A stretch of 64,000 bases of DNA. Source: Mesostigma viride (lineage: Eukaryota; Streptophyta; Mesostigmatophyceae; Mesostigmatales; Mesostigmataceae). The position numbers and the translations under genes were made by a program. Positions 35,176-61,000 of this stretch are shown piece by piece. The stretch is from positions 2,837,911-2,901,910 of the forward strand of contig RPFO01000065.1 in NCBI GenBank assembly GCA_009746045.1, in the 5' to 3' direction. The notes under the pieces were generated by a model that was not told the origin of the DNA, made no database searches, and was given only the letters and a program-made list of their open reading frames with translations. Each line of letters starts with the position of its first letter. Positions within the stretch are counted from its first letter, which is position 1.

Positions 35176-35806
35176 TAAAAGCGACCGCGATTGTAATTTG
35201 GACTTTCCTAGCAGGATATGGAGCACACCTTGATGGGCGTGGTGCGTGACGAGAGACGGCAATGTGAAGATGATTGCTGGGAATTGGGAACGGCATGGCA
35301 GTGCAGGATAGAAGCTTCCACGTGGCAACCTGCGACGGCTTTGAGCAGATACTAGGGGGATTTCAGCTGTGACTACCGGCAGCATGATTGTGGCGCGGGC
35401 AAGGGCAACAACAACAACCGGCAGCATAAACGCCGGGGTGATCCGGTTCACGCCATGCCATCTGGTCACGCCTTCTTACTTGGCCAAGGCGTGCCACCTC
35501 GCGCAGGAACTGGATCGTGTGTCTTGCGTAGTTCCAGCTTCCCCCCATTATTACCCACCTCCTGCCCACCTTAATGTTGATCACTGTCCAGATTCCAACG
35601 TTAGCGTTGCAGCAGACGCGCAATTAAATGATTGGAACGGCCGTAAGTGCCGAAATTGCGGTGGTTGACTTGGCTACCGCAACTGATTGTAAAATTTTGA
35701 AGGCAGTATCAGTGGGCGTCCAATTAAGAGTTATTAGAGGGCATTCGTTTCTTCTGGAAACGCATGGTTATGCCATTGGGCCCCGGCTTTGTCTCCCAAA
35801 GCAGAT
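35176..35806. promoter_or_regulatory. 631-bp spacer between divergent cupin and NFKBIL1-like genes
   Basis: Holds both 5' regions. No specific promoter element is recognisable. Part of it may be the 5' coding end of the cupin gene if a more upstream start is used. Confidence 0.4.
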
Positions 35807-38800
35807 ATGAGCAAGGAACGGAAGAGGAGAGAGCGAAAATTGCTGCATGCTGCAGCTGCGGGCCGCCTGAAAAAAGTAGAGAAATATATCTTGAAAGATA
35901 CGAAGGTGTCCAAGTCTGCTCGAGTGAAAACCCGCAGCAAAAAAGCTGACAAGTTAAAAGATGTGAAGCTAAACGTAAACTGTGTCGATTGGGAGGGACG
36001 CACTCCTCTCCACCTGGCATGTGAGGCCGGATCTGCCGACGTTGTTCGCTTTCTCATTGGCCATGGTGCCATCCCGTTCGCCGTGGACTCGAAAGGCCGG
36101 TGCCCCCTGCATGAAGCCGCCCGCAAAGGCCATACCGATATCCTGTCCTTGCTGGTTGCGTCGGGGGCTGACATGGAAGCACCGGACGAGCATGGTGTCA
36201 CCCCCAAAGCGCTACTGGCCGAGCATGACGCGCGACAGGAGGAGAAGCGGCGCCAGGCGGCCCGCGTGCACCTCGAAGACGATCCGCCCCCTCTCTCCTG
36301 GCACGACCGGCTGGCGGAGGAGTGCGGCTTGTTCCCCAACGGTGACGCCTTCTTTGGCGGCTGGTCTTGTGGCGACGAGGCAGCCGCGGAGCACCACCTG
36401 GCAGATGACCTGTTTGAGCGGCTGGCCAAGGAGATGCTGCGGCGGCGCGCACGCTACATGGACGAGCCGCCCCGGGCGCCCAAGCAGGCCAAGCAGAGGC
36501 CGATCGGGCCGCAACCGCGCGCTGGGGGTGCCGCTTCTGCCGGCGCCCACCCCCTCGATGATGGTGCCTTCCATGACACACAGAGAGAGCTGGGGGCGGA
36601 GGGGGCGAGGGCACGGGAGCAAGGGTTGGCGTCACTGCGGCAGCGCAGAGCGGGGTACCTGGCCAACTGGGAGCGCATGGCTGACATCAGCGCGACGAGG
36701 GAGCTGACGTACGATGACATTGCGTTCCCTGTGCCTGAGGGGCAGGAGGCGGAGCTGGCGGCGGTGCTGCTAGTGGACGTGGGGCCGGAGGAGGAGAAGA
36801 AGGAGGTTAAGGCGCACGTGGTGCGCTGGCATCCAGGTACGGCAGGCACGCGCGGGTGGAGCCACGCTCTCAGGCCATGCCCTTGCGCCATGCCCTTGCG
36901 CCATGCCCTTGCGCCATGCCCTTGCGCCATGCCCTTGCGCCATGCCCTTGCGCCATGCCCTTGCGCCCTCATGTCGTGACTTTGTGCCATGGCCATGCTC
37001 CATGTTTGCTCACGTCGATATGGTAATGAAATGCTCACACGGGTCATATTGCACACACAGGGGATGCCGGATCGTTCCGACGGGGCCGATTGTGCACCCT
37101 GTTGCATGCCTGTCTCTGCCCCCCTGCCCGGCGACCGCTATGCACACTCAGTGATTAAAAGCACTCTGGTGCTCCGTGACTCCCCCATGGGAGCACGTGT
37201 TTAATTAAGGGGAGGGGACATGCCTAAAGTGCACTTTTCTGGAAACCACACCTATGCATGAGGTAAAAATCCAATGATGATTGGGGACCATAAATATGAT
37301 TAAAAAAAAAAAAATCCAACCAGTTTGGGGTGGTACTAGCCCCCATTACACACCGGTAACGCGCTAAAAACGGAAAATGTCGCTATTTTAGTCACATTTT
37401 CCCTAGGGCAGTGGGCAAACACATTGGGACCAAACCACACATTTCCATATAGTTCCCTGACTTTTGAGAAATTCTGCCTAATTGGGACCAAGAAATAAGC
37501 ATGGATGCACAAGTTATTAATTTTCCCGCAAAAAAGGGTCCTTTTTTCACACACGCACAAAAAACAAATCATAAACACTTCCAAAAATGCCATACCACAT
37601 ATTTTCAAATACTAGAGGTTGGGGGGCATGCAACGCCAAATTTTGAGGTCTTTCTGACAACCACAGCTCAACTTATTGACGTTCACAGGTTGTCACCAGT
37701 GACGAAGCTAAGGGAGGTTTTAGCCAGTATTTAACCACACTAACACCCCTTGATACATCAAAGCCACGTGAAAACTGGCCAAACCACATACTACCATCCT
37801 CTGCACGTATGGTACCTCCTATGTTCAAGGTTTGACGACATTCTGACAAGAACTGCCCAAGTTACAACCATTCCAAGACGGCCACCCATGTAGACACTAC
37901 AAGGAAATTAGAGTAACCATTTAGCCACACTAGCACCTCCTTCATCAACGACAACTGCAAACTGACCAAAGCACACATAATTCTTGCACGCTGATGGCAA
38001 TGCATGCTCAATGTGGGGGGTCATTGTGACAAGAACTACTCAAGTTGATGGGTTTCCTATATGACCACCTGACAAGGCGCTAAGGACCACTCAGTAAGTT
38101 AGTAACCCCACAGTGCCACTTCATATGCCATCCAACATGCACCAAAACCATGCTGAGTATGTTTACAATGTACAAAGGGGTGGCCACGCACCTCATACGT
38201 CTTCATCGTCCCTCGAGCATGGCCAGCCTTGTAAATATGCGCATAGCCTTGACAATGGTAGCCCCAACATGCCTAAGCAGCATTTCCTATGTTTCTCCCA
38301 GGTTAGAGTGTAAGGTTGATGCCAACCAAGCTAATCAACACAACAACACCCCCTAAACTGTCCTCCCCGGCATGGATGACAAACTAGGACTATGGAGGGC
38401 AAGGAACCAAGTAGGAACATGGTAATAATAGCTTGCATGCAATCATGCATGTCAACCATGGTTGGCTCAGCACATTGTAGTGTTGTCACATCATCATAAC
38501 AAAGGAAAGCTCAAACAACCAATGGTGGCAGCTATCTACATGCAGTCACACAAATGCAATATCTCCAACATCATCATCACAAAAACACTTCCATCCCTGC
38601 ACGATAAAATGCAAAGAAACCATTGGCGGCCCTTCAGCGCATTAGCGCTGTGATGCCGCTGCGGCCTGCGAAGAGAGGGTGCATCACTCTCACACAACAA
38701 GAAGCGTCCATGCGCACAACATCCTTGCCAGAACACGTTTTATGAAATGCCTTCTTCCTTCCCGAAGAGCTATAGGCTGCGACTGAAGCGGCCCTGATCA

Positions 38801-45848: not shown

Positions 45849-46136
45849 CACCGTCCAGTGTTCCACGTCCAGTGTTGTTGTTCCACCGTCGTGAAATTTG
45901 TTCCACCGCGCCTGGCCGCCCCCACCCACCGCCGGTGGCTTGCGCCACCTTTACCCTTGTCAACCCGTCGCCCCTCGGGTTGGGGACAACGCCTCCACCA
46001 TCCCTGCTGCTCCGCCCCCGAACCCCCGCTACTTGGCAGATTCTGTGCCTCAACGGCTTTTTGTGCCTCAACGGCGAGTACCAGCACAGCCGTACACTCC
46101 CGCTTACACAGCCCGCCCACTAGCAAGACAGCCGAA

Positions 46137-46460
46137 CCTGTACGGCCGGCCACAGCCTGTGATCCCCTGGATTACGCCACGATTCCATGCAAACTCATGG
46201 TGCCGGACGGTTTGTTGACAGATTCCGTGCACTGAAATGCACGTGGCGGCTGCCCATATACCAACCTACGACGATCGTCGTAGGTTGGTCCATGGGCAGC
46301 CGCCACGTGCAGGGGAATAACTTCACCCGAACCTGTCCGGCCGGCCACAGCCTGTGATTACGACACGATTCCATGCATATTCATTGTGCCGGACGGTTTG
46401 TTGACAGATTCCGTGCTCTGAAATGCACGTGGCGGCTGCCCATAAACCACGTGCAGGGAA
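46137..46460. repeat. Duplicated 110-bp block with a 72-bp palindrome
   Basis: The palindrome spans 46239-46310. A 28-bp perfect core at 46261-46288 is flanked by two 3-bp mismatches and then 19-bp perfect arms (gcacgtggcggctgcccat and its complement). The preceding block (ggccggccacagcctgtgat ... tttgttgacagattccgtgc) is repeated at 46333-46432, followed by a collapsed hairpin with only the outer arms (46426-46452). Confidence 0.9.
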
Positions 46461-46976: not shown

Positions 46977-48465
46977 ATGGCGACACCGGCATCGCAGATC
47001 TACCGGCTCGCTGGCAAGATCATGCACGTCGGCATGTATACTCCCCCCTCAGGCCGCAACTTGCACGCATACCACATCATCGTTGTGGACAAAAACGGGA
47101 AGGCCCACACCGTCATTGCCAACGTGGATGACTTTCGTCGCCAGAACGGGCTGGACGTTGGCAAGGAGACCTTCCCCGTGGGCCAGCATGCTCAGTTTGT
47201 GACCAACACGCGGACACCATGTACTTGGAGTGCTTCTGGGTAGGTAGCAATCCCAAATCGCATTCCTTGTTCTTCATATACAGCTTGTGCATCACTATCT
47301 CAAGGAGACGACCAACATATATCTATTTCTTTGCCTTCTTGACTAACTTATTCTCGTTATTGTGTGCATTGTTGTTCTTGGGCGCAGGTTTACACTCCAC
47401 TTGCGGAATGGCAACAACATGCGTCTGGTTGACACGCCCATCGATGGAGGCAACTTCACGATGCCGTTCGACTTCACGCCGTTCAAAGCGCTGGAAAAGA
47501 AGATCCCGGTCGCCAATGGCCACGTTAAGGCCTCCGTGGATGTCTTTGGTCTGGTGAACGCCATTTACCGACCGAAGGCATCGGCCAAGACGTCGCGGAC
47601 ACGCATCATCCTTGCGGACTCTTCCACGGCTGCGACGGCCGCCACCATTTCGGTCATGCTGTTCGACGACGCCCAACAGGCGGTGGTCGACAACGCGCAC
47701 GCAGGCGCCACGCTGGTCATCGCCATCAAAGGCGCCAAGCTCGGGTATTACCAGGGGAATGTGACCCTGGCTGCGGGAAACACCGCTTACGTCACCACCA
47801 GCGACGTGGTGGGCGGCGACGCAGCAACTTTGAAGGCCGATGCCCTCAAAGATGACAAGTACAAAGGAATCGCCATCGTCGACGAATCTCCGGTCATGTC
47901 GTTGGTGGACATCAGCGCCAAGGCGTGGAGCGACCTCAAAGCGGGCTCCTTTTCTGCGACGTGCGAGGCTCAGCTCACCCCCGCCGAGCACTATAATGAC
48001 CCAAAGCGGTGCATTTACTATGGCTGTGTGCAAAAGGCGCGGTCGTCAAACCGCACGTGTCGCAAGGCCCTCGTCGACGGGGTGTGCACTGACCACCCCG
48101 GGGTACACCAGAAGGGCAGCCCGTTTTTCCACGGGGGATGCTACATTCGAGATCCCAACCACTTCATCAAGGTGTCCCTGTTCACGGACGGAGTGTCGTC
48201 CATGCTTCGCGACCCGCCCGTCACGCCAACCGAGTGGCTTGACATGGACCCGAAGGAGCGCGCCCAGCTGTGGGAAAACTTCTTTTCGTCCAACCGATGG
48301 ACGAACCTCCACCTGCGTGTCCGCCCGGCGCAGTTCGCGTCCGCCGCCCCCGGGTCCAAGGAAGGGCCCCAGTACCTCCTGGTCGCGAAGGACTACTTCT
48401 TCCCTGATCTCGACAAGCAGGCCCAGGACATCAAGTGGGATGATTTTGATTGGTCCTCTGTTTGA
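46977..48465 (+). CDS. RPA70-like single-strand DNA-binding protein encoded by the Helitron-like element
   Basis: Two exons, 46977-47239 and 47388-48465 (phase 2), encode 446 residues. The start MATPASQIYRLAGKIMHVGM sits 6 bp after a likely 5' UTR splice acceptor. The protein looks like a chain of OB folds of replication protein A large subunit: an N-terminal fold with YHIIVVDKNGKAHTVIAN, then VDVFGLVNAIYRP with RTRIILADSS and ISVMLFDDAQQAVV, typical of RPA DBD-A/B. A cysteine cluster like the DBD-C zinc ribbon follows: CIYYGC, RTCRKALVDGVCTDH and GGCYIRD. RPA-like genes are known passengers of autonomous Helitrons in plants and other eukaryotes. The gene points towards the RepHel gene, whose stop is 584 bp away. 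Its probable role is to coat single strands during rolling-circle transposition. The frame is intact. Confidence 0.75.
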
Positions 48466-49049: not shown

Positions 49050-52000
49050 TCACTCATCAATGGTCACGCGGTACAAGCATGCCACTGTGCTCTTTGCCAA
49101 GCTCACGAGGTCCATTCTCCCACCATATGGATATTGTTTGGGACAGTTGGGGTGGGCGTGCGCCTTGTAGGGGTCAACCTCCTCCCAATCATCATCACCA
49201 TTAAACCTACGGAGATACACAAAGTGGTTGGGACGATACTCAAGAACCCCGTACAAGTGTGCTACGATTGCAACCGGCCGGCAAGCGCGACCCACCCAGA
49301 TGGACATCCGGAAGGTGGTCGGTAGCCCTTCACCGGCGTAATTACGAACAGGCAAAGCGACCGTATTGCCATGTACATTCCCAAACACCAGCACACGGGG
49401 CACGTTATCAAAGTAACGCAAAGGTGTGCAACCGACGCAGCCACAGTTATATGGACAAGGGGCGTGGTCGGGCCGGCGTGTACAGGCTATGATCATGCGT
49501 TCTTTGATATCTATGTTTTCACCCAATTCCAACGCTATGGATATTGGGTGCACTAATTCTCCGTCAGTACCAAAAGGTTGGCGGCACATGAAATCGCCTT
49601 GGCGCAATCGCGCATACTTGAATCGCTGCATGAAATGGTATAGGTTATGGCGCGCGTCTCCAACCGCATGGTTAGCGCGGTCTGCCGTGGCATCTAATGG
49701 TGTACGTAAGAGGCGCCTCGCAGCGTTCATGTCAGAAACATTGCCAAAAGCATGCGCATGGATGTACTCAACCATGCGCACACCGATGGCACACGAGGCT
49801 CTATGCCTGTCATTCAGGCGATTGCACTGCAGTACATCTAATAACACAAGCGTGCCAACTAGAAGTGTTAAGGCCACGCTATCATAGAAAAGATGCCATG
49901 CGGCATCGACATGGCAACTATTTCCGACCCAATCAGCCATGAGAAGACGTCGCATGGGCAACGGCCCTGAGCGAAAGCGTCCTACTAAGCCTGAGAAGTC
50001 GTTGCAATGGGCCGTACTTGGAGTTGACTCGGCCCGCGCTGGAGTGTACACCCATGACGCGGGTGGGTTAGGAACGCAAAAATCATCTGTATCGTGCACG
50101 TGGTCGTCACCCACCGCTTGCGCGGCCTGGCGTGAGTCATGTGATGACCTCGGAACTGCGGATACAACGTAACAGCACGCAATGGTGTCCCACGCCAAGT
50201 GCTGCATGTCTTTTGCAGAACAAGGCAAGACGCAGTCATTGCGCTTGTTGCCGTCCACCAGTGCCCACGGGGTATCCACGCCGGCCCGACGTAGCAGTTG
50301 AAAATGGGCCCCGCCGGACCTACGCAACACCCCGCTGAGCCACGCATTCACGCGAACCTGTTCACGCGCGTCGCCGACCGAGACGACCATTTGTAGAGAT
50401 TCTGGCAACCCTGGCGATGCGTTGCGCCCCCGATCCAAATGCATCTGCCAAATGCCACCGAATGCAAGGAACGGGGGCACTTCCGGAAGATACACCTTTT
50501 GTTTGCAGTTGGACCTGGCAGTGCAATCAACCTCAGGGCACCTTACAACCTTAAACTCCTGGTACGCAGATGCCATATGCGCAGCCAAGGTTGTGTGATC
50601 GTCGCGGTCATAAAGCATCAATGGCAGCGTAACGGCGCCAAAGTCAAAGAACGGTGGGACATGGCACGAACGCTCCCCAAGCCGTGGATGGCCTCGAGAC
50701 ACGTACCCCATCATGTGCTCCACGTCCTCTAGGGCGCATTGCATGGACCCCGCTTGACGAGCCATCGTTGGATCAAGGAGCTTGCGCAGTTTCTCCCTCG
50801 CCGCCGTCATCCCAATGCCGTCCTCGCGCGCGGCGGCGGCCATCGCGTTGAACAGCTCGACCCCGATTTTGCATGCCGCACCGTGGGCAACACCCGCCGG
50901 ACGCGACAGCAAAGAACGCAGCCCGGAGCGCGTGGCAGTTTGCGTTGCAAGCAATAGCACGTACAAAAACTCAAGGGCAGCGTCGTAGTGGCAGCTATTG
51001 CGCGCCCACGTGAACGTGACTTGGCGGCCTACAGGCAGCAGCAAATCGCCGCACGCACCCACCAGGTCCTCGAAAATGGCGCAGTCCTTGCACCCGCACG
51101 AACTCGCTGCGCCATCATCGCCAGGCCGCGCGGCAGACGTGGTCCGTGCACCGGTTGTTTGCCGCGAGCTGTTCGGACGCGATGCAGCTGCAACGTCCCG
51201 TGGCGCGCCAGTCGCCGTTTGTTGGTCGCCCCTTGTCCGCGAATCATCTTGCGTGGCGACCGGTGTCGCCGGAACCGCTGCCGCCGCACTTTTGGCCGCG
51301 GACTCCGCAAGGCCTCTCGCCCGCATTTCCGCGTCCAGATCGCGTAGGTTCTTCTTTAACTCGACTAGGTGAGACATGTCGAGCACCGGCGCGCCGATCG
51401 ATAGTTGCGACCCCCAGCTGACCTGAGACGACGCGACATCGCTGCGCGCGTCGACCTGCAGAAAGCCATGTGAGGGCGACACGCAAAAACGGCACATCGG
51501 CGAGATGGCTAAGTTGTCCGACATGCATGCAATATCAAATTCATAAAGCATGAAGGAAACACGGAACCGCATGCAAGACTCGACACGTACCATCCTATCG
51601 CTCCCAAGGTCAAGGTTGTCCCAAACGCTTGAACCCACGGAATCGCGATTGCCCTCGCTGCCACCAGGCGATGCGCCGCCCCACACGGAAGATGCCTGCG
51701 TCACCGTGATGTCCACGCAATCGCCACCACGCAGCAGACAAAAATTAGAGCCCCAATAATGCAAGATCTGAAACACAATACCACAGCACGCAACACATCC
51801 AAATGCTGCTATCGTACCTCGTCGTCATCCGCCACGCTCACGTCGGATCCCGATGGCCACTCAGGCTCAGACCCGAGTTCCTCGTCAGACCCGCTGCACG
51901 TATTCCCAAAGTCGTCGTCATTCACAAAGTCCTCTGGATATTTATCCCTCATGAACCTTCCCCACATCGGTTCCTCGTAGTCCATGAACCACTCCCTTTC

Positions 52001-55000
52001 ACGCACCGCCTCGTCCAACCCATCGTGACAGTGATCAGTGGCCAAGCCGCCCTGCGGCGGCAAGACTCCATCGTCATCACCGTCTTCCCCATACGTCTTG
52101 TAGTCGTCAACCACGTCACCGTCACCCTCCTCGCCCTCCACCACAGCATCCACCTCCCTCTGGGCGTACAGCTCCTGCAACTCTGCAAACAACGGGTCCG
52201 GCATGTCACCTTGTTTGAACAGCTTTGCCCCTTCCAAGATGGTGCGGTGCACAACGTTCGGGCTACAGCCAACCCCATCCAACTCGTGCGCGAACAGCCC
52301 GCGAATCAAATCCTTGCCACCGACGCGGCTCAGCGCCGTGTACAACATGCCGTGGCTAAACATGTCCGTGCGCAAGTCCAGCCCAACACGTTGTAGAGTC
52401 TGCCCCTGGCACTTGTGCACGGTAACACCGTATGCGAGCTGCACAACGATCCACAGACACGAATCACACGAGCACACGCACGATTTAAGTTAAGAACAAA
52501 TTTTGGGCACAGAAAATTAAAAACGCAGTGGCAAAGCAAACAAAATACTTAGCTTGCACGTACCTCTAGTGGGAACATCCTCCGTCGCACCGGGTAGCCC
52601 TTCATGAAGAAGTTGATGCGTGGGATGAGGTGCTCCTTCTCATCCAAGGTATGCACGACCATAAACTTGTCCGTCGCCCCTTTGATCACGACCCGCGTGC
52701 CGTTCAAGAGGCCATCCTTGTGCGACAAATTCCGTGTAATAATGGCGATGGCGTTCTTCTTCCACTTGAGCTCATGCTGGGGCACGCCGCTCTCCCACGC
52801 GTCGTTCAGGAACTCTTGCGGGATGCGCGCCTTGTTGTGGGGATCATTGGTGGAGTCGTGCTTCTCGCGGTGTGCGTCTCCCCAGGCAGCCTTGCCAATA
52901 CCGCTGCGTTGATGGCGTGCCGCGCGGCATTCGTGCCCGTCACGATTGATGAGCGCATGCACGCACCAGTATCGTTGACGTCCGGGAACGTGAACTCGAT
53001 GAGCTCATCCACGTCCGCCACCTTCTCGACCATCTTCAACGGCACCATTGCCTCCAACCGGCCCGTCTTCTTGTTCTCAACCTTGATGCGCCGCATCCGA
53101 TCCGTGCCCACGTCCAACAACATCTGACTGTAAACCTCCTCATTGCAACGAAAGTTGCGAGTCAAGGCGAGCTTCCTGACGCCCACCCACAGGTCCGAAC
53201 GCACCACGCTCGCCGCGCACGCCCGCGTGCTGTCCCCCACAGGCGGAGCCACTTGGCGGAAGTCCCCAGCAAACACCATCACCTTCCCACCAAAGGGCTC
53301 ATCCTTGGAGCCTAACAGGTCCCGCAACAGCGCGTCCAACAACTGCAAGTGCACCTTGTGGACCATGCTGATCTCATCGTAGATGATGACGTCCGCATCA
53401 ATCAGCACTTTTGCTTTGGCGGAACCGAAGCGCACCCCGCACCCGGCTTCCGTGTCCAGCTCCAGCGGAAACCCTGCAAAGTGGTGCGACGTGCGACCCC
53501 CCCGCACCTGCGTCGCCGCCACGCCCGTGAACGCCATCGCCACCACATTGCGCCCCTCGTGATTGCACTGCTGCACAACCGCGTTCAGCACGCGCGTCTT
53601 CCCTGTACCCGCTGGACCGTCCACAAAAAAACGCCGGTGCGAGATCTCCCCTCTTACAGCATGCATGATGGTCTGAAACGAGAGGGTTTGTTCCATGGAA
53701 AAGTCGCCCACAAACGCCCGCGGCCCGCGGTGCGGTCGTGGCTGCTCGAACGCGAACACGTCCTCCCCCGCGTCACGCCGCGCCTTGAGCTGCGGGTCCA
53801 ACGCCCACACGTCCACGCCCCGATCGCACAACCGCTTGTCCAAATAATCCATCAAGCGCGCCAGTGCGCGCTGTCGGTCCGCAAATGTGATTCCTTCCGG
53901 CCGCGCCGCATCCCCGCAACGCTTGGCGTACTCGTTGTCGACGTAATCAACGCACATGTCGTCGCGGAACTTCCAAAGCTGTTCGGGTGTCGCCATGTTT
54001 TGCAGAAGCAGCACGCAGAACAATCGTCGCAACGAAGGTGGCGCGCTCTTCCTTTCCACCGCTTGGCGCATGGCCTCCACCGCCTCGTTATCATCCTCCA
54101 GCAAATGTAACCGCTGGCATGCCTCCTCATACGTCAGCACCTCGCCATCCACCGTGCACAAGTCCTGCCACGACCGGCCCGCGCGCTTCAACAACAACGT
54201 GCGCAGAAAAAATAACTGCGGCTTCCTCAGGTCCGCGATGTAGATGCGCGCGTAATGCCGCTTCTTGCGCAGCTTCAAGTAGTAGCGTGGCGGGGGCGGC
54301 GGGTCTCCTGACTCGCTCTCCGTGTCGGCACGCTGGGTGTCCACGACGCAGAAGATGACCTGCAGTGCAGTCATCGTTCGCACAATTGTTAGCACACCGT
54401 TAGCAGACCCCCGCGGTTCACACATGCGCACAAATAACAACCTATCCAATCAAGCATAAACAAAGTCGTTGCTCGCCATACAACACCCTAAACAAATTCG
54501 TACCTCGCCATTAGCATTCCTTAGCGCGTCCTTTGGCACTTTGATCTCCTTGCCCTTTCTCCTCGCATCCTGCCATGTGTGCGTACACACGTACGGCCAC
54601 ACGGACAGAATAGAAGAAAACACAAACATCATACAAACCATGCAACCCACCATAGCTTCCGCACCGCAAGGGTGGTGAAAAAAATTCAGCATAGCTTCCC
54701 CACCACAAGGGTGTTAAAAAAAATTCAGCATAGCTTCCACAACGCGAGGGTGGTGAAAAAAATTCAGCATAGCTTCCGCACCCCAAGGGTGGTGAACAAA
54801 ATTTTAGCATAGCTTCCGCACCCCAAGCGTGGTGAAAAAAATTCAGCACAGCTTCCGCACCACAAGGGTGGTAAAAAAAATTCACCATAGCTTCCGCACC
54901 CCAAGGGTGGTGAAGAAAATTTCAGCATAGCTTCCGCACCTCAAGAGTGGTGAAAAAAATTCAGCATAGCTCCCGCACCGCAAGGGTGGTGAAAAAAATT

Positions 55001-58000
55001 CAGCATAGCTTCCGCACCCCAAGGGTGGTGAAGAAAATTTCAGCATAGCTTCCGCACCGCAAGGGTGGTGAAAAAAATTCAGCATAGCTTCCGCACCGCA
55101 AGGGTGGTGAAAAAAATTCAGCATAGCTTCCGCACCCCAAGGGTGGTGAAAAAAATTCAGCATAGCTTCCGCACCCCAAGGGTGGTGAAGAAAATTTCAG
55201 CATAGCTTCCGCACCGCAAGGGTGGTGAAAAAAATTCAGCATAGCTTCCGCACCCCAAGGGTGGTGAAAAAAATTCAGCATAGCTTCCGCACCGCAAGAG
55301 TGGTGAAAAAAATTCAGCATAGCTCCCGCACCGCAAGGGTGGTGAAGAAAATTTCAGCATAGCTTCCGCACCGCAAGAGTGGTGAAAAAAATTCAGCATA
55401 GCTTCCGCACCCCAAGGGTGGTGAAAAAAATTCAGCATAGCTTCCGCACCCCAAGGGTGGTGAAGAAAATTTCAGCATAGCTTCCGCACCGCAAGGGTGG
55501 TGAAAAAAATTCAGCATAGCTTCCGCACCGCAAGGGTGGTTAAAAAAATTCAGCATAGCTTCCGCACCCCAAGGGTGGTGAAAAAAATTCAGCATAGCTT
55601 CCGCACCGCAAGGGTGGTGAAGAAAATTTCAGCATAGCTTCCCCACCACAAGGGTGGTGAAAAAAATTCAGCATAGCTTCCGCACCCCAAGGGTGGTGAA
55701 CAAAATTTTAGCATAGCTTCCGCACCCCAAGCGTGGTGAAAAAAATTCAGCACAGCTTCCGCACCACAAGGGTGGTAAAAAAAATTCACCATAGCTTCCG
55801 CACCCCAAGGGTGGTGAAGAAAATTTCAGCATAGCTTCCGCACCGCAAGAGTGGTGAAAAAAATTCAGCATAGCTCCCGCACCGCAAGGGTGGTGAAAAA
55901 AATTCAGCATAGCTCCCGCACCGCAAGGGTGGTGAAGAAAATTTCAGCATAGCTTCCGCACCGCAAGAGTGGTGAAAAAAATTCAGCATAGCTTCCGCAC
56001 CCCAAGGGTGGTGAAAAAATTCAGCATATCTTCCGCACCCCAAGGGTGGTGAAGAAAATTTCAGCATAGCTTCCGCACCCCAAGGGTGGTGAACAAAATT
56101 CAGCATAGCTCCCGCACCGCAAGGGTGGTGAAAAAAATTCAGCATAGCTTCCGCACCCCAAGGGTGGTGAAAAAAATTCAGCATAGCTTCCGCACCGCAA
56201 GAGTGGTGAAAAAAATTCAGCATAGCTCCCGCACCGCAAGGGTGGTGAAGAAAATTTCAGCATAGCTTCCGCACCGCAAGAGTGGTGAAAAAAATTCAGC
56301 ATAGCTTCCGCACCCCAAGGGTGGTGAAAAAAATTCAGCATAGCTTCCGCACCCCAAGGGTGGTGAAGAAAATTTCAGCATAGCTTCCGCACCGCAAGAG
56401 TGGTGAAAAAAATTCAGCATATCTCCCGCACCGCAAGGGTGGTGAAAAAAATTCAGCATAGCTTCCGCACCCCAAGGGTGGTGAAGAAAATTTCAGCATA
56501 GCTTCCGCACCGCAAGGGTGGTGAAGAAAATTTCAGCATAGCTTCCGCACCGCAAGGGTGGTTAAAAAAATTCAGCATAGCTTCCGCACCGCAAGGGTGG
56601 TGAAAAAAATTCAGCATAGCTTCCGCACCCCAAGGGTGGTGAAAAAAATTCAGCATAGCTTCCGCACCGCAAGGGTGGTGAAAAAAATTCAGCATAGCTC
56701 CCGCACCGCAGAGTGGTGAAAAAAATTCAGCATAGCTTCCGCACCCCAAGGGTGGTGAAAAAAATTCAGCATAGCTTCCGCACCGCAAGAGTGGTGAAAA
56801 AAATTCAGCATAGCTCCCGCACCGCAAGGGTGGTGAAGAAAATTTCAGCATAGCTTCCGCACCGCAAGAGTGGTGAAAAAAATTCAGCATAGCTTCCGCA
56901 CCCCAAGGGTGGTGAAAAAAATTCAGCATAGCTTCCGCACCCCAAGGGTGGTGAAAAAAATTCAGCATAGCTTTCGCACCCCAGAGTGTTAAAAAAAATT
57001 CAGCATAGCTTCCGCACCACAAGGGTGGTAAAAAAAATTGGCTTGCGTGTGGGGGAAAGCTGCCATGCATGTACATGTAGATGAGGGTGGCTGCCATGCT
57101 TGCGTGGGTAAAGGGGGCGCCTGGTATGCATGGGTGTGCGTGGGTGTGGTGGCCATGCATGCATGTGGGGGGGGAGAGGCTGCCATGCATCACAAGCACT
57201 GACACGACACACACCTATTGCCCCCACCAACACCCTCCTTCTTACCATCTCCTCATCCTCCGACTTGGCCTTGTGCACAGAGTACGTGCGGTAGAACTTG
57301 ATATACTTCATCGCATCCATGCCCGGAAGGTCCTCCTCGGAGGGGCGCCCAAAGTAGACCTGAAGCTCCGTGTGTGACCGCTCCCGCAACGCCTTTTCCA
57401 TGCTCCCCTTGACATTCTCCACATACGCGATCTCGTTCTCCTTGGGCACGTGCAGCGGCAACAACGAACATCCCGGACGCATGAAATGCTCGTGGAAACC
57501 CATCAACACCCACTCTGCCCGCGACGCCGACACCTGCACCCAACCACCGCAACCACAATCGCAAAGCACGCATCAACACCAACGCTACCGTCAAGCAACA
57601 TGATTACCGTCGCATACACAGCAAGCATTCCACCGAGTGCCACATAGATTTAGAACCCACCCATGCAAACGACCACGCCAAGACTCACCCGCCTAGCGGC
57701 AAGGTAGTCCGCGATCTCATCATTGCCGTCGCTCGTCACCTTGACGTCCGCCGTCTCGTCAGACTTGTTCATATACTTGTTCAAATACTCGACGATGTGG
57801 ATGCTGGCGACGATCTCCACATTGATGTGACAATCGAGCAGTAGCAAAAACACGGGATTATATGGCACAATCCACCTATTCAGCTTGCACAAGGGCCGCC
57901 GGCGATACTGCATGTACCCGCGCGCGTCCACATACGTCCTCCCCACGTACGCCTTGGGGAACTTCTTTTGGCAAACCGGCCACGTTACATTCGCGTCGCA

Positions 58001-61000
58001 CTCCTCCAAATCTGGCAGACCCTCGTCGTACTCCTTCCTCGCCGCCTCTTCCGCCCGCACGTCGGCAGCCCTCGCTGCCATCCTGGGAGGCTGCTCCACC
58101 TCCTTCCGCCTACCCTGCATGCACTTGGTGCCGCGATGATGATTGTGCACCATATGCGTTAAAACCTTCTCGCGCAACTCGGGCATCTCGACCGGGGGCA
58201 GCTCAGCCCATACGTGCTGATCCACCAACCCGTTCTCGTTCGTAGGGTGGCATACCTTGGGGAGCCGGTAGATGATATGAGCATGCGGCAATCCCCGGGT
58301 CTGATATTCTATAACGTATGTCAGATACACCGGCTTGCGCCCAAAGACCACCCCAGATGTAATCAAGGAGATGAGGAACCGCAACTTCAGTTTGAACACC
58401 CGATCCACGATATCGGGATGCTCTAGCGGCTCTTTGGTCCCATCCGGTTTTGCCGGCACGTTATCCAAGATCTCTTTCCATCGAGGATTGCAAGTCATCG
58501 TCACAAAGTGACTCGGCTCGCCATCCGTGACAATCGCCGCCAACTGATCCTGGATACGGCTGGCGCGCGCTCGAACCCCAAAACCCACGCCTGCTGGAAT
58601 GATGACCTTCTTGCCCACGCGCAGCTCATCAAGGACCTCATCCCCCGCATCCACCGCATCGTAGTCAATGTCCTCCTCCTTCTCGCGCTGCTCCAACTGC
58701 CGCAACGCATCCTCGGCCTCACGCACCGTCGCAGTGCGCAGCTGCACGTCCTCCTGCATGCTACGCACATATGACAACCGGTTGTCTTGCACGCACGAAA
58801 ATGCGTGCAGCGCAAACAATTGCCTCAAGGTGCCCTTGTTGCGAAACCGCTCGTCCGAGTACAGGCAATACTTCAGAATCTTGCCCAGTTTTTCCGACCT
58901 TGAACCATCCTTGGACGCGCCACGCCCGTACCACCACAAGCCGACCCCCTCGGAAAACAGCACAGGGAACGCTAGGGGCATGTACCTCTGGTCCCCCATC
59001 ACCAACCTCCGGCGGTACCGCTGCTCCCCATCCGCGTTTCGCTTGACAAAATCCACACGGAACTCGGCCGGTTCCGCCGTCCGCGTGTCCCTGCACACGT
59101 CAAAAATATGAAAATCCATTGACAAATGAATAAGTTTCCCTCTGTTTACACATCAATCACCCATTCATACTTTGAAGAACAACGCACCTGCCAAAACATC
59201 TTCCATTCATCACTTCCACCCACAATCTCACTTACGCAGGGAAGATGAAGATCTCTTGCGCATCCACCTCAGCCTTGTCTTTCTCCGCGACCTCCATCTT
59301 CCCTTCCCTCACGTCCGCCAACACCGTCTCCGCTTGGTGCACGAAATTCTGCAACAGCTCGTTGTAATCGCTAAAGTACTTTTCCATCTCCGCCAACAGG
59401 TTGCCTGACTGCCCCTCCCTCAAGTCAAGCCTGCAAGCAAACATACATTGCAACACAAGAACTTGTTGAGGTCATGCTGCCATGTACACCTCCATGCAAT
59501 AGTAACAAAACTACGATATTCTAGGCAGGAAATAACGCGACAAACACGCACTTTCCCCACTCACTTTGCTGTCACCGATGCCAACGCTTGGGACTTCTCC
59601 GCCCCGCCCAGCAACATGTACATGGTGTTGTTGCTCTGCTTGCCATCAATCACGAGCGGGTCCACCATCTCGACCGTCTGACCATGCAACTCAAGTACGC
59701 TCGCGCCACGGCCCTCCGCAGCGTGCCCTATTGGCTTGGAAGCCACCACGTGTGCCACCGCAAAATACCTATTAATGCTCCGGCCGTAGGCCATCCACTG
59801 CCTCACATTGTCGGGATCGCAATGGATGCTACGCAACGCCTCCTCCTGCGGTGTCAACAAGTACTGGGCACGCTCCTCGGCGGTCCCCCTGCCCTCCGCC
59901 ACCATCTCCTCCCACGTGCGCCGCTTCAGCATCACGTCCCGCAAATTGGGTTCGAGCCCCTTGCCCACCATTTTCCCATTAGAGCAGCACGGACTTGTAT
60001 CGCGTCGCTCCTCCTTGAACAGCGGTGCGCCACACTTGCGGCAAACGCACGTGCGATGACCAAACAGGTCATACGGCCTTTGTTCATCCGGGACATCGGC
60101 AATAGGTCTCAAACAGTACTCCCTAACCTTGTCAAAGCCAGCAAAGTCACCAGTAACGCGTGAAGCCATGAGCCTCCTCGCGTCGCTGCCGGTAATCCCA
60201 AACTCGTTACGCTCCTTTCGCTCCTACACCACGTGAAGCAAGTGCGCACATGCAAAAGACACAATGCACAAAATGCATCGGCTCAGAGCTAGCATGCGCA
60301 TGTCGGTTTGTGGAGTGGCTGGCATCCATCATTGCGTGGGGGGGGGGCTGGCATGCGAGCGTGGGCTTGTGGGGCGAATGCCATGCTTGCTTGGGTGTGT
60401 GGGAGGCTGGCATGCGTGCTTGGGTGTGTGGAGGGGCTGGCATGCGTGCGGGCATGGGAGGTAAAGCTGCCACGCATGCCTATGTGTGGGGGGGGCTGGC
60501 ATGCGTGTGTTCCTGTGGGGGGGCCTAGGCATAGAAAAACAAACCACTAAACCTTACCCTCACGACTCGCTGTCCGGACGTCTCATTGCGCCACCGTGCT
60601 TCAATCGGGTCAATGAAAGCAACAGGAGACGCAGTCGAGTCAAAGTCCGGCCACGGTTCCGGGATCAAGCCATCACTTGGGGTCGACGGTTCAGTCTTGT
60701 ACCCATCACTTCCAGCCCCGTAGCCTGCTTCATCCTCATTAGCACCCCCAATGTCACCAGGGTCACTCGAGCCTCCATCGCCATCATCCGGACTCCGCCT
60801 CCTTCGCCGCGCCGTACATCGACGTCCCGGCTGCTCATCCTTCCGCAGTGTTCGGTCTGCTCTCCTCCGTGCTGCATTCGCTTGCCCCGCCTCGGCTGCC
60901 TGATTCACATTCGTCTCCCCTATATTGACGCTCGCCTGCCCATTCCTCATAGCAGGGCCTTCCTGCTGCGACCTTTTATTTAACAGCGACCTTCTGTAGC

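What the first reader, a model, noticed from the sequence alone, without database searches (positions are those of the whole stretch)
49050..51767. Helitron transposase with two tandem USP-like cysteine peptidase modules as its C-terminus
The 905-codon last exon joins the helicase in frame: the 50-bp intron 51768-51817 has a stop inside, GT-AG borders and phase 0 on both sides. Each half has an Asn-Ser-Cys-His-x-Asp-Ala box (near 50990 and 49910), a Cys cluster (RCPEVDCTARSNC; CPYNCGCVGC), and a late His plus Trp/Asp segment (GAHFQLLRR...WALVDG; NHFVYLRR...DDWEEVD). That order matches the Cys box, finger and His/Asp boxes of ubiquitin-specific proteases (peptidase family C19). OTU-type proteases are known in some Helitrons; a doubled USP-like module is not something I know. 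It could act on ubiquitin or related modifiers on replication or repair proteins, or process the polyprotein.
Basis: partly seen in the sequence, partly recalled or inferred. Interest (0 to 1): 0.87.

Follow-up and report, generated by a model that had tools for sequence, protein, structure and literature searches.

The report
Helitron tail of tandem peptidase modules
A jumping gene in this eukaryotic genome ends in a row of protein modules that look like distant ubiquitin-removing enzymes, some intact and, in sister elements, some disabled, which would give this class of jumping genes a third kind of tool for tampering with the cell's ubiquitin tags.

Summary
The window carries a Helitron (Rep, Pif1 helicase, convergent RPA-like ORF) whose last exons encode two homologous ~320-aa modules (29% identity, E=1e-19). 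The tail also follows the helicase in divergent Helitrons of the same genome, where it has up to five modules, intact and disabled mixed. Of 22 modules with the Cys box, 22 keep His and 21 Asp (one is cut short); of 13 readable modules without it, 1 keeps His and 13 Asp. Pfam, PROSITE-type patterns and PDB sequence searches do not recognise USPs here. Profile comparison favours USP over UCH and OTU and puts the triad in register. AlphaFold models were unusable, so the fold is unproven. Helitrons with other deubiquitinase classes (VTD, OTU) are known (PMC9741609). Best reading: a third, USP-like class that strips ubiquitin or a relative from the transposase or replication/repair proteins; activity untested.

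The parts
57689..59090 (-). Rep (HUH) exon of the Helitron
   Evidence: PF14214 Helitron_like_N E=1.5e-31; exon ends read by eye from GT/AG borders
52564..54359 (-). Pif1-type helicase exon; frameshifted in this copy near 52865
   Evidence: PF05970 PIF1 8.2e-46 and PF21530 Pif1_2B_dom 7.8e-09 in two different frames; one frame in copies L026 and L027
51818..52438 (-). last helicase exon with acidic linker
   Evidence: UvrD_C_2 0.0017, below Pfam's cut-off; 40-64% identity to the same exon in six other loci
51696..51817 (-). revised intron, 122 nt, phase 0 (124 nt in two other copies)
51591..51695 (-). small exon, 35 codons
   Evidence: GTACGT..GCAG; 8 substitutions between copies; length divisible by three, so the ORF stayed open
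49050..51455 (-). last exon: linker, modules A and B, stop
50151..51119 (-). module A, USP-like; Cys 50991-50993, His 50304-50306, Asp 50253-50255
   Evidence: module HMM match; catalytic register to USPs; codons
49053..50042 (-). module B, USP-like; Cys 49914-49916, His 49224-49226, Asp 49173-49175
   Evidence: module HMM match; catalytic register to USPs; codons
47347..48465 (+). RPA-like ORF, convergent, beside the tail in other copies too
   Evidence: REPA_OB_2 0.00086, below Pfam's cut-off; present next to the tail in L026, L027 and, at 45% identity, L004

Best explanation
The tail is a tandem array of USP-like thiol isopeptidase modules fused to the C-terminus of a Helitron RepHel transposase. 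Each intact module uses a Cys-His-Asp triad, with an Asn two residues before the Cys as the likely oxyanion-hole residue, to remove ubiquitin or a ubiquitin-like modifier. The most likely target is the transposase itself or host replication and repair proteins at the rolling-circle intermediate, sparing them from the proteasome or resetting repair signals. In sister families the disabled modules are kept as non-catalytic modules, probably for binding the modifier or positioning the chain. Shown: the modules, their homology, the residue pattern, the position after the helicase, selection in most comparisons. Inferred: fold, enzyme activity, substrate, role of the disabled modules.
For: Two homologous modules in the window. 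Helicase found in the fetched DNA at 9 of 11 tail loci (the window plus 10 loci with 17-20 kb each), Rep at 8 of 11. In-frame exon chains from helicase to tail in the window family and in L013 (three small exons of 78, 75 and 120 nt, GT-AG borders). Of 39 non-identical module sequences covering at least 60% of the model, 22 have the N-x-C box (this is how I sorted them); of these 22 of 22 keep His and 21 of 22 Asp, the other being cut short. Sixteen lack the box; of the 13 readable there, 1 keeps His and 13 keep Asp. The last of the 39 is an A-type module cut before the Cys. Loss of His together with Cys is what a catalytic pair predicts. Module-USP score 29.4 against 15.9 for UCH-USP and 15.7 for OTU-USP by the same method. 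Triad in register for A-only, B-only and joint profiles. His-to-Asp distance 17 in both window modules (positions), 15-17 in seven USPs. dN/dS below 0.75 in 75 of 79 module pairs compared.
Against: No USP family among Pfam hits: the best E-value for any family over 16 modules is 0.01 (Herpes_heli_pri, 5 members), and module A's only hit is Peptidase_C71 at 0.16; none of 32 PF00443 matches in the genome falls on a listed tail locus. No PDB sequence hit better than E=0.07, to designed proteins. AlphaFold pLDDT 38.5 and 36.0. hhalign probabilities are low (8.4% joint, 22% A-only, 0.3% B-only). Single-sequence tests do not favour USP2 over papain or UCHL1, though USP7 scores 26.8. The helicase decoy scores 22.6 against the modules. 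Cys-to-His distance (229-230) is shorter than in all seven USPs (241-321). dN/dS is 0.95-1.02 in 4 of 79 pairs, all with L024. No transcript or protein evidence.
Confidence: 0.68

Rival explanations
1. The modules are thiol isopeptidases of another papain-like class (UCH, OTU, VTD or an unnamed one) that resembles USPs in spacing only.
For: UCH scores 20.7, reached by only 2 of 200 shuffles; the NSC box and the HF...VDG stretch resemble UCHL1 (recalled sequence). Helitrons are known to carry VTD and OTU domains (PMC9741609, passages).
Against: The 7-USP profile scores higher and its low-threshold alignment runs end to end through the finger region, though the UCH and OTU profiles hold only three and two sequences. 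Cys-to-His distance is 229-230 here, 241-321 in seven USPs, 71 in UCHL1. VTDs need Asp-x-His; two before the His the window modules have Gly and Pro, and the only Asp-x-His seen is in one disabled module of L012.
Confidence: 0.17
2. The modules are not enzymes but zinc-binding structural or DNA-binding modules; the Cys and His bind metal.
For: Several invariant Cys in each module.
Against: In modules without the Cys box the late His is usually gone too while the CxxC of the finger region mostly stays.
Confidence: 0.12
3. The tail is a separate gene next to the helicase, not part of the transposase.
For: Without splicing, the helicase frame stops three codons after the exon; no transcripts were available.
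Against: In-frame splice chains in the window family (3 of 3 copies) and in L013; tail exons begin at or near AG acceptors with acidic linkers.
Confidence: 0.12
4. The modules cut the transposase protein itself rather than ubiquitin.
For: The modules sit in a very long protein; self-processing is a common use of thiol peptidases (general knowledge).
Against: The resemblance is to isopeptidases, and tested Helitron VTD domains cleave ubiquitin (PMC9741609).
Confidence: 0.08

Closest known systems
VTD-carrying Helentrons (PMC9741609; abstract and passages read)
   Same: Helitron protein with extra thiol deubiquitinase modules, in zebrafish DrT1 two active ones; inactive repeated copies occur in insect genes.
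   Different: VTDs have Asp-x-His and sit with an AP-type endonuclease; here the Asp lies 17 residues after the His, and Pfam showed no endonuclease in the exons I scanned (not every exon).
OTU-carrying Helitrons and Ginger1 transposases (PMC2836005, passages read)
   Same: Transposon protein with a ubiquitin-type thiol peptidase; the authors suggest a role in transposition and repair.
   Different: The OTU profile scores no better than many shuffles (33 of 200 reach it).
Trichomonas vaginalis transposase_11 plus Peptidase C19 protein (as told in PMC2836005)
   Same: USP-family domain attached to a transposase.
   Different: A different transposase; a domain recognised as C19; no tandem array described in the passage I saw.
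Ubiquitin-specific proteases, peptidase family C19 (PF00443)
   Same: Order Cys box, finger region, His, W-x3-D; catalytic residues in register.
   Different: Not recognised by Pfam or by recalled PROSITE-type patterns; most Cys boxes have H or P after the Cys and D or N three after it; no GHY; Cys-to-His distance slightly shorter.

Membership tests
Helitron (RepHel) | HUH Rep domain followed by Pif1 helicase | tested here: met
   PF14214 1.5e-31, PF05970 8.2e-46
Helitron (RepHel) | terminal sequences (5' TC, 3' hairpin and CTRR; recalled) | tested here: inconclusive
   Homology between copies ends near 46009 and 61427; no significant hairpin at the window's 46-kb edge (z 0.59)
USP / peptidase C19 | Pfam PF00443 or PF13423 match | tested here: not met
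   yardstick: six recalled human USPs pass both models, and recalled USP2 is 335/335 identical to PDB 3nhe_A
USP / peptidase C19 | PROSITE-type Cys-box and His-box patterns (recalled) | tested here: not met
   0 of 39 modules; 7 of 7 USPs match both
USP / peptidase C19 | Cys, His and Asp/Asn in USP order and register | tested here: met
   for A-only, B-only and joint profiles, in low-threshold full-length alignments; spacing
USP / peptidase C19 | profile similarity beyond chance | tested here: inconclusive
   score 29.4, 1 of 2000 shuffles reach it, but hhalign probability only 8.4% and B-only 0.3%
USP / peptidase C19 | palm-thumb-finger fold | tested here: inconclusive
   AlphaFold pLDDT 38.5 and 36.0 with two-sequence alignments
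USP / peptidase C19 | deubiquitinase activity | not testable with these tools
   needs a bench assay
VTD deubiquitinase | Asp-x-His active-site motif (PMC9741609) | tested here: not met
   Gly and Pro two before the invariant His in the window modules
OTU | similarity to OTU profile (two recalled sequences) | tested here: not met
   score 14.9, 33 of 200 shuffles reach it
UCH (C12) | similarity to UCH profile (three recalled sequences) | tested here: inconclusive
   score 20.7, 2 of 200 shuffles reach it; Cys-to-His distance far shorter in UCHL1

The most novel reading that the evidence does not exclude
A previously undescribed family of Helitron-borne isopeptidases, related to but outside the USP family, that forms arrays of two to five modules in which catalytic and catalytically dead copies are combined. 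The whole array would act as one chain-reading enzyme for ubiquitin or another modifier, with modules swapped between Helitron families by recombination at module borders.
Probability: 0.4. Interest if true: 0.78.

Novelty: new variant of a known kind. Interest (0 to 1): 0.66.

Why it matters
Two deubiquitinase classes (VTD, OTU) are already reported in Helitrons. A third class in another set of elements would argue that removing ubiquitin or a relative is a general need of rolling-circle transposition, and would make that testable. The mix of intact and disabled modules would also be a natural set for studying how pseudo-deubiquitinases work.

Tried and rejected
Chance or junk: rejected, because the modules recur in divergent families with invariant key residues. 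Protein database: none of the 7991 candidates scored reached E<=10; could not be made (database switched off), so distribution outside this genome is unknown. Viral contigs: searches confirmed no relative; could not run. Literature: searches were answered (5, 1, 6, 1 and 0 papers listed); none of the listed papers, by title, abstract start or the passages I read in three of them, describes a USP-like domain in a Helitron. The library is open-access only. Some searches failed; PMC4224331 was not held. Searches were rechecks for this report.

Full report
What is there. The minus strand of the window from about 61.4 kb down to 46 kb is a Helitron. Its Rep exon matches Helitron_like_N (1.5e-31) and its helicase exon matches PIF1 (8.2e-46). 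A convergent RPA-like ORF lies at 47347-48465 (REPA_OB_2 0.00086, under Pfam's cut-off). It sits beside the tail in copies L026 and L027 and, at 45% identity, in L004. The frame 49050-51767 is open and has two halves that are homologous to each other: 29% identity over 329 aligned columns, E=1e-19.

Splicing. Two near-identical copies elsewhere in the genome (L026, L027; tails 99% identical) have a 1-nt insertion inside that intron and another just after its acceptor; they share these changes, so they are not independent of each other. With an acceptor at 51696 (intron 122 nt here, 124 nt there) and a second 135-nt intron at 51456-51590, both read through to the tail end, and so does the window. 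Between the copies the second intron has 8 substitutions in 135 nt, the exon before it 0 in 105 nt, and 456 nt of the exon after it 5. I therefore replace one exon by two and keep the conclusion that the tail is joined to the helicase in frame. In the divergent family L013 the helicase also joins the tail in frame through three small exons of 78, 75 and 120 nt with GT-AG borders; for the third a second donor (66 nt) would also keep the frame.

A family, not a single oddity. The window's genome (440 Mb, 2243 contigs) gave 61 tail matches with 50 of 451 candidates scored; I group them by hand into 32 places. One search, with a disabled module as query, adds four contigs. I fetched 17-20 kb at ten of the places. 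Counting the window, 9 of 11 have the helicase in the fetched DNA and 8 of 11 have Rep; C1106 (5.63 Mb) and C723 show neither, and C1690 shows helicase only. In the divergent families Rep is 42-47% identical to the window's, the main helicase piece 48-50%, and the modules 32-38% apart from one 44% fragment.

Module number. An iterated profile of the modules finds two in the window family, four in one open frame in L012 and L014, and pieces in several frames that add up to four in L018, L019, L024 and L030. L015 shows three (disabled, A, B), L022 two, and L009 five, one of them split over different frames. In the four-module tails the order is disabled, A, disabled, B; in L009 two disabled ones lie between A and B. 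Of 39 non-identical module sequences that cover at least 60% of the model, 22 have the N-x-C box, which is how I sorted them. All 22 keep the His and 21 keep the Asp; the remaining one is cut off. Sixteen lack the box; of the 13 readable at the later columns, 1 keeps the His (L012) and 13 keep the Asp. One is an A-type module cut before the Cys. These sequences are related, so the counts are not independent events. Modules with and without the box are clearly homologous (hhalign probability 99.94%, E=2.8e-37; the second set includes the cut A-type module).

Selection. Of 79 module pairs with at least 60% identity, 120 codons and 8 differences, 46 have dN/dS below 0.5 and 75 below 0.75; four lie at 0.95-1.02, all with the disabled modules of L024. 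Low values occur for disabled modules too: L014/L018 D1 0.08, L012/L019 D2 0.26, L009/L014 D1 0.44, L009/L012 D2 0.51. Many pairs share sequences, so these are not independent.

Which peptidase class. The tail as a whole has no Pfam hit. Over 16 modules the best E-value for any family is 0.01 (Herpes_heli_pri, 5 members), and no USP family is listed; module A's only hit is Peptidase_C71 at 0.16. PDB sequence searches give nothing better than 0.07, to designed proteins. Scores were 29.4, 20.7 and 14.9. Column-shuffled module profiles reached the USP score in 0 of 200 and 1 of 1800 trials, the UCH score in 2 of 200 and the OTU score in 33 of 200. The USP profile is the largest, which may favour it. 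UCH against USP and OTU against USP, accepted fold relatives (general knowledge), score only 15.9 and 15.7 by the same method; the Helitron's own Rep and helicase profiles score 16.2 and 18.5 against USPs, and the helicase scores 22.6 against the modules. The reversed USP profile scores 19.7. Single sequences discriminate poorly: USP2 18.5, papain 19.7, UCHL1 18.8, USP7 26.8. A-type modules alone score 33.3 (E=0.00096), B-type alone only 17.7. In A-only, B-only and joint profiles the full-length, low-threshold alignment places Cys on Cys, His on His and Asp on the USP Asn/Asp. The His-Asp distance is 17 in both window modules (positions) and 15-17 in the seven USPs, each with a Trp four before the Asp/Asn. 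The Cys-His distance is 229-230 here, 241-321 in the seven USPs and 71 in UCHL1. 0 of 39 modules match the recalled PROSITE-type patterns that all seven USPs match. So these look as if they work like USPs, but I cannot file them as members.

Structure. Two AlphaFold runs with the two window modules gave mean pLDDT 38.5 and 36.0. I did not interpret them or search folds with them.

Mechanism. The best-supported reading is an isopeptidase array that removes ubiquitin or a related modifier from the transposase or nearby replication and repair proteins. The analogy is direct: zebrafish Helitron VTD domains react with ubiquitin probes, those of DrT1 also with NEDD8, DrT1 has two active copies, and the authors suggest such domains protect proteins needed for transposition (PMC9741609, abstract and passages). 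Earlier authors proposed a link between transposase OTU/Ulp1 domains and repair and mention a Trichomonas transposase with a C19 domain (PMC2836005, passages). Neither substrate nor activity is shown here.

Novelty. Deubiquitinase modules in Helitrons are known; a USP-like class in arrays of two to five with pseudo-enzymes was not described in what I saw of the papers listed. I call it a new variant of a known kind.

Noticed in passing
window 52806-53004: The helicase frame shifts by one base near 52865 in the window copy; copies L026 and L027 read one frame there, so this copy is probably not autonomous.
   Followed up: partly
window 54651-57039: A 39-bp minisatellite of about 61 copies lies in what looks like an intron of the transposase gene; other families (L011-L014) carry roughly 185-bp tandem repeats (spacing seen).
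   Followed up: partly
L022:3143-3148: Mosaic element: L012-type DNA (98.3%) switches to L009-type DNA (94.1%) between modules A and B, leaving a two-module tail; L015 likewise has an L012-type A and an L009-type B.
   Followed up: partly
L012 and L014: Their A modules are strongly diverged while their B modules are 94% identical with dS 0.05, which suggests exchange of modules or 3' ends between Helitron families.
   Followed up: partly
L027:4210-4568: Module B of the third copy is interrupted by about 357 nt.
   Followed up: no
window 46009-46222 and L032: A stretch of about 209-214 bp at the element edge recurs at about 738-bp spacing beyond the element in C1435 and C180, as if element ends were arrayed in tandem.
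   Followed up: no
window 61427: Homology with copy L028 ends here although L028 continues with coding-like sequence, so the window copy seems truncated or interrupted at its 5' end.
   Followed up: no
window 35789-36979: ORF with strong ankyrin repeats (PF00023 5.9e-19).
   Followed up: no
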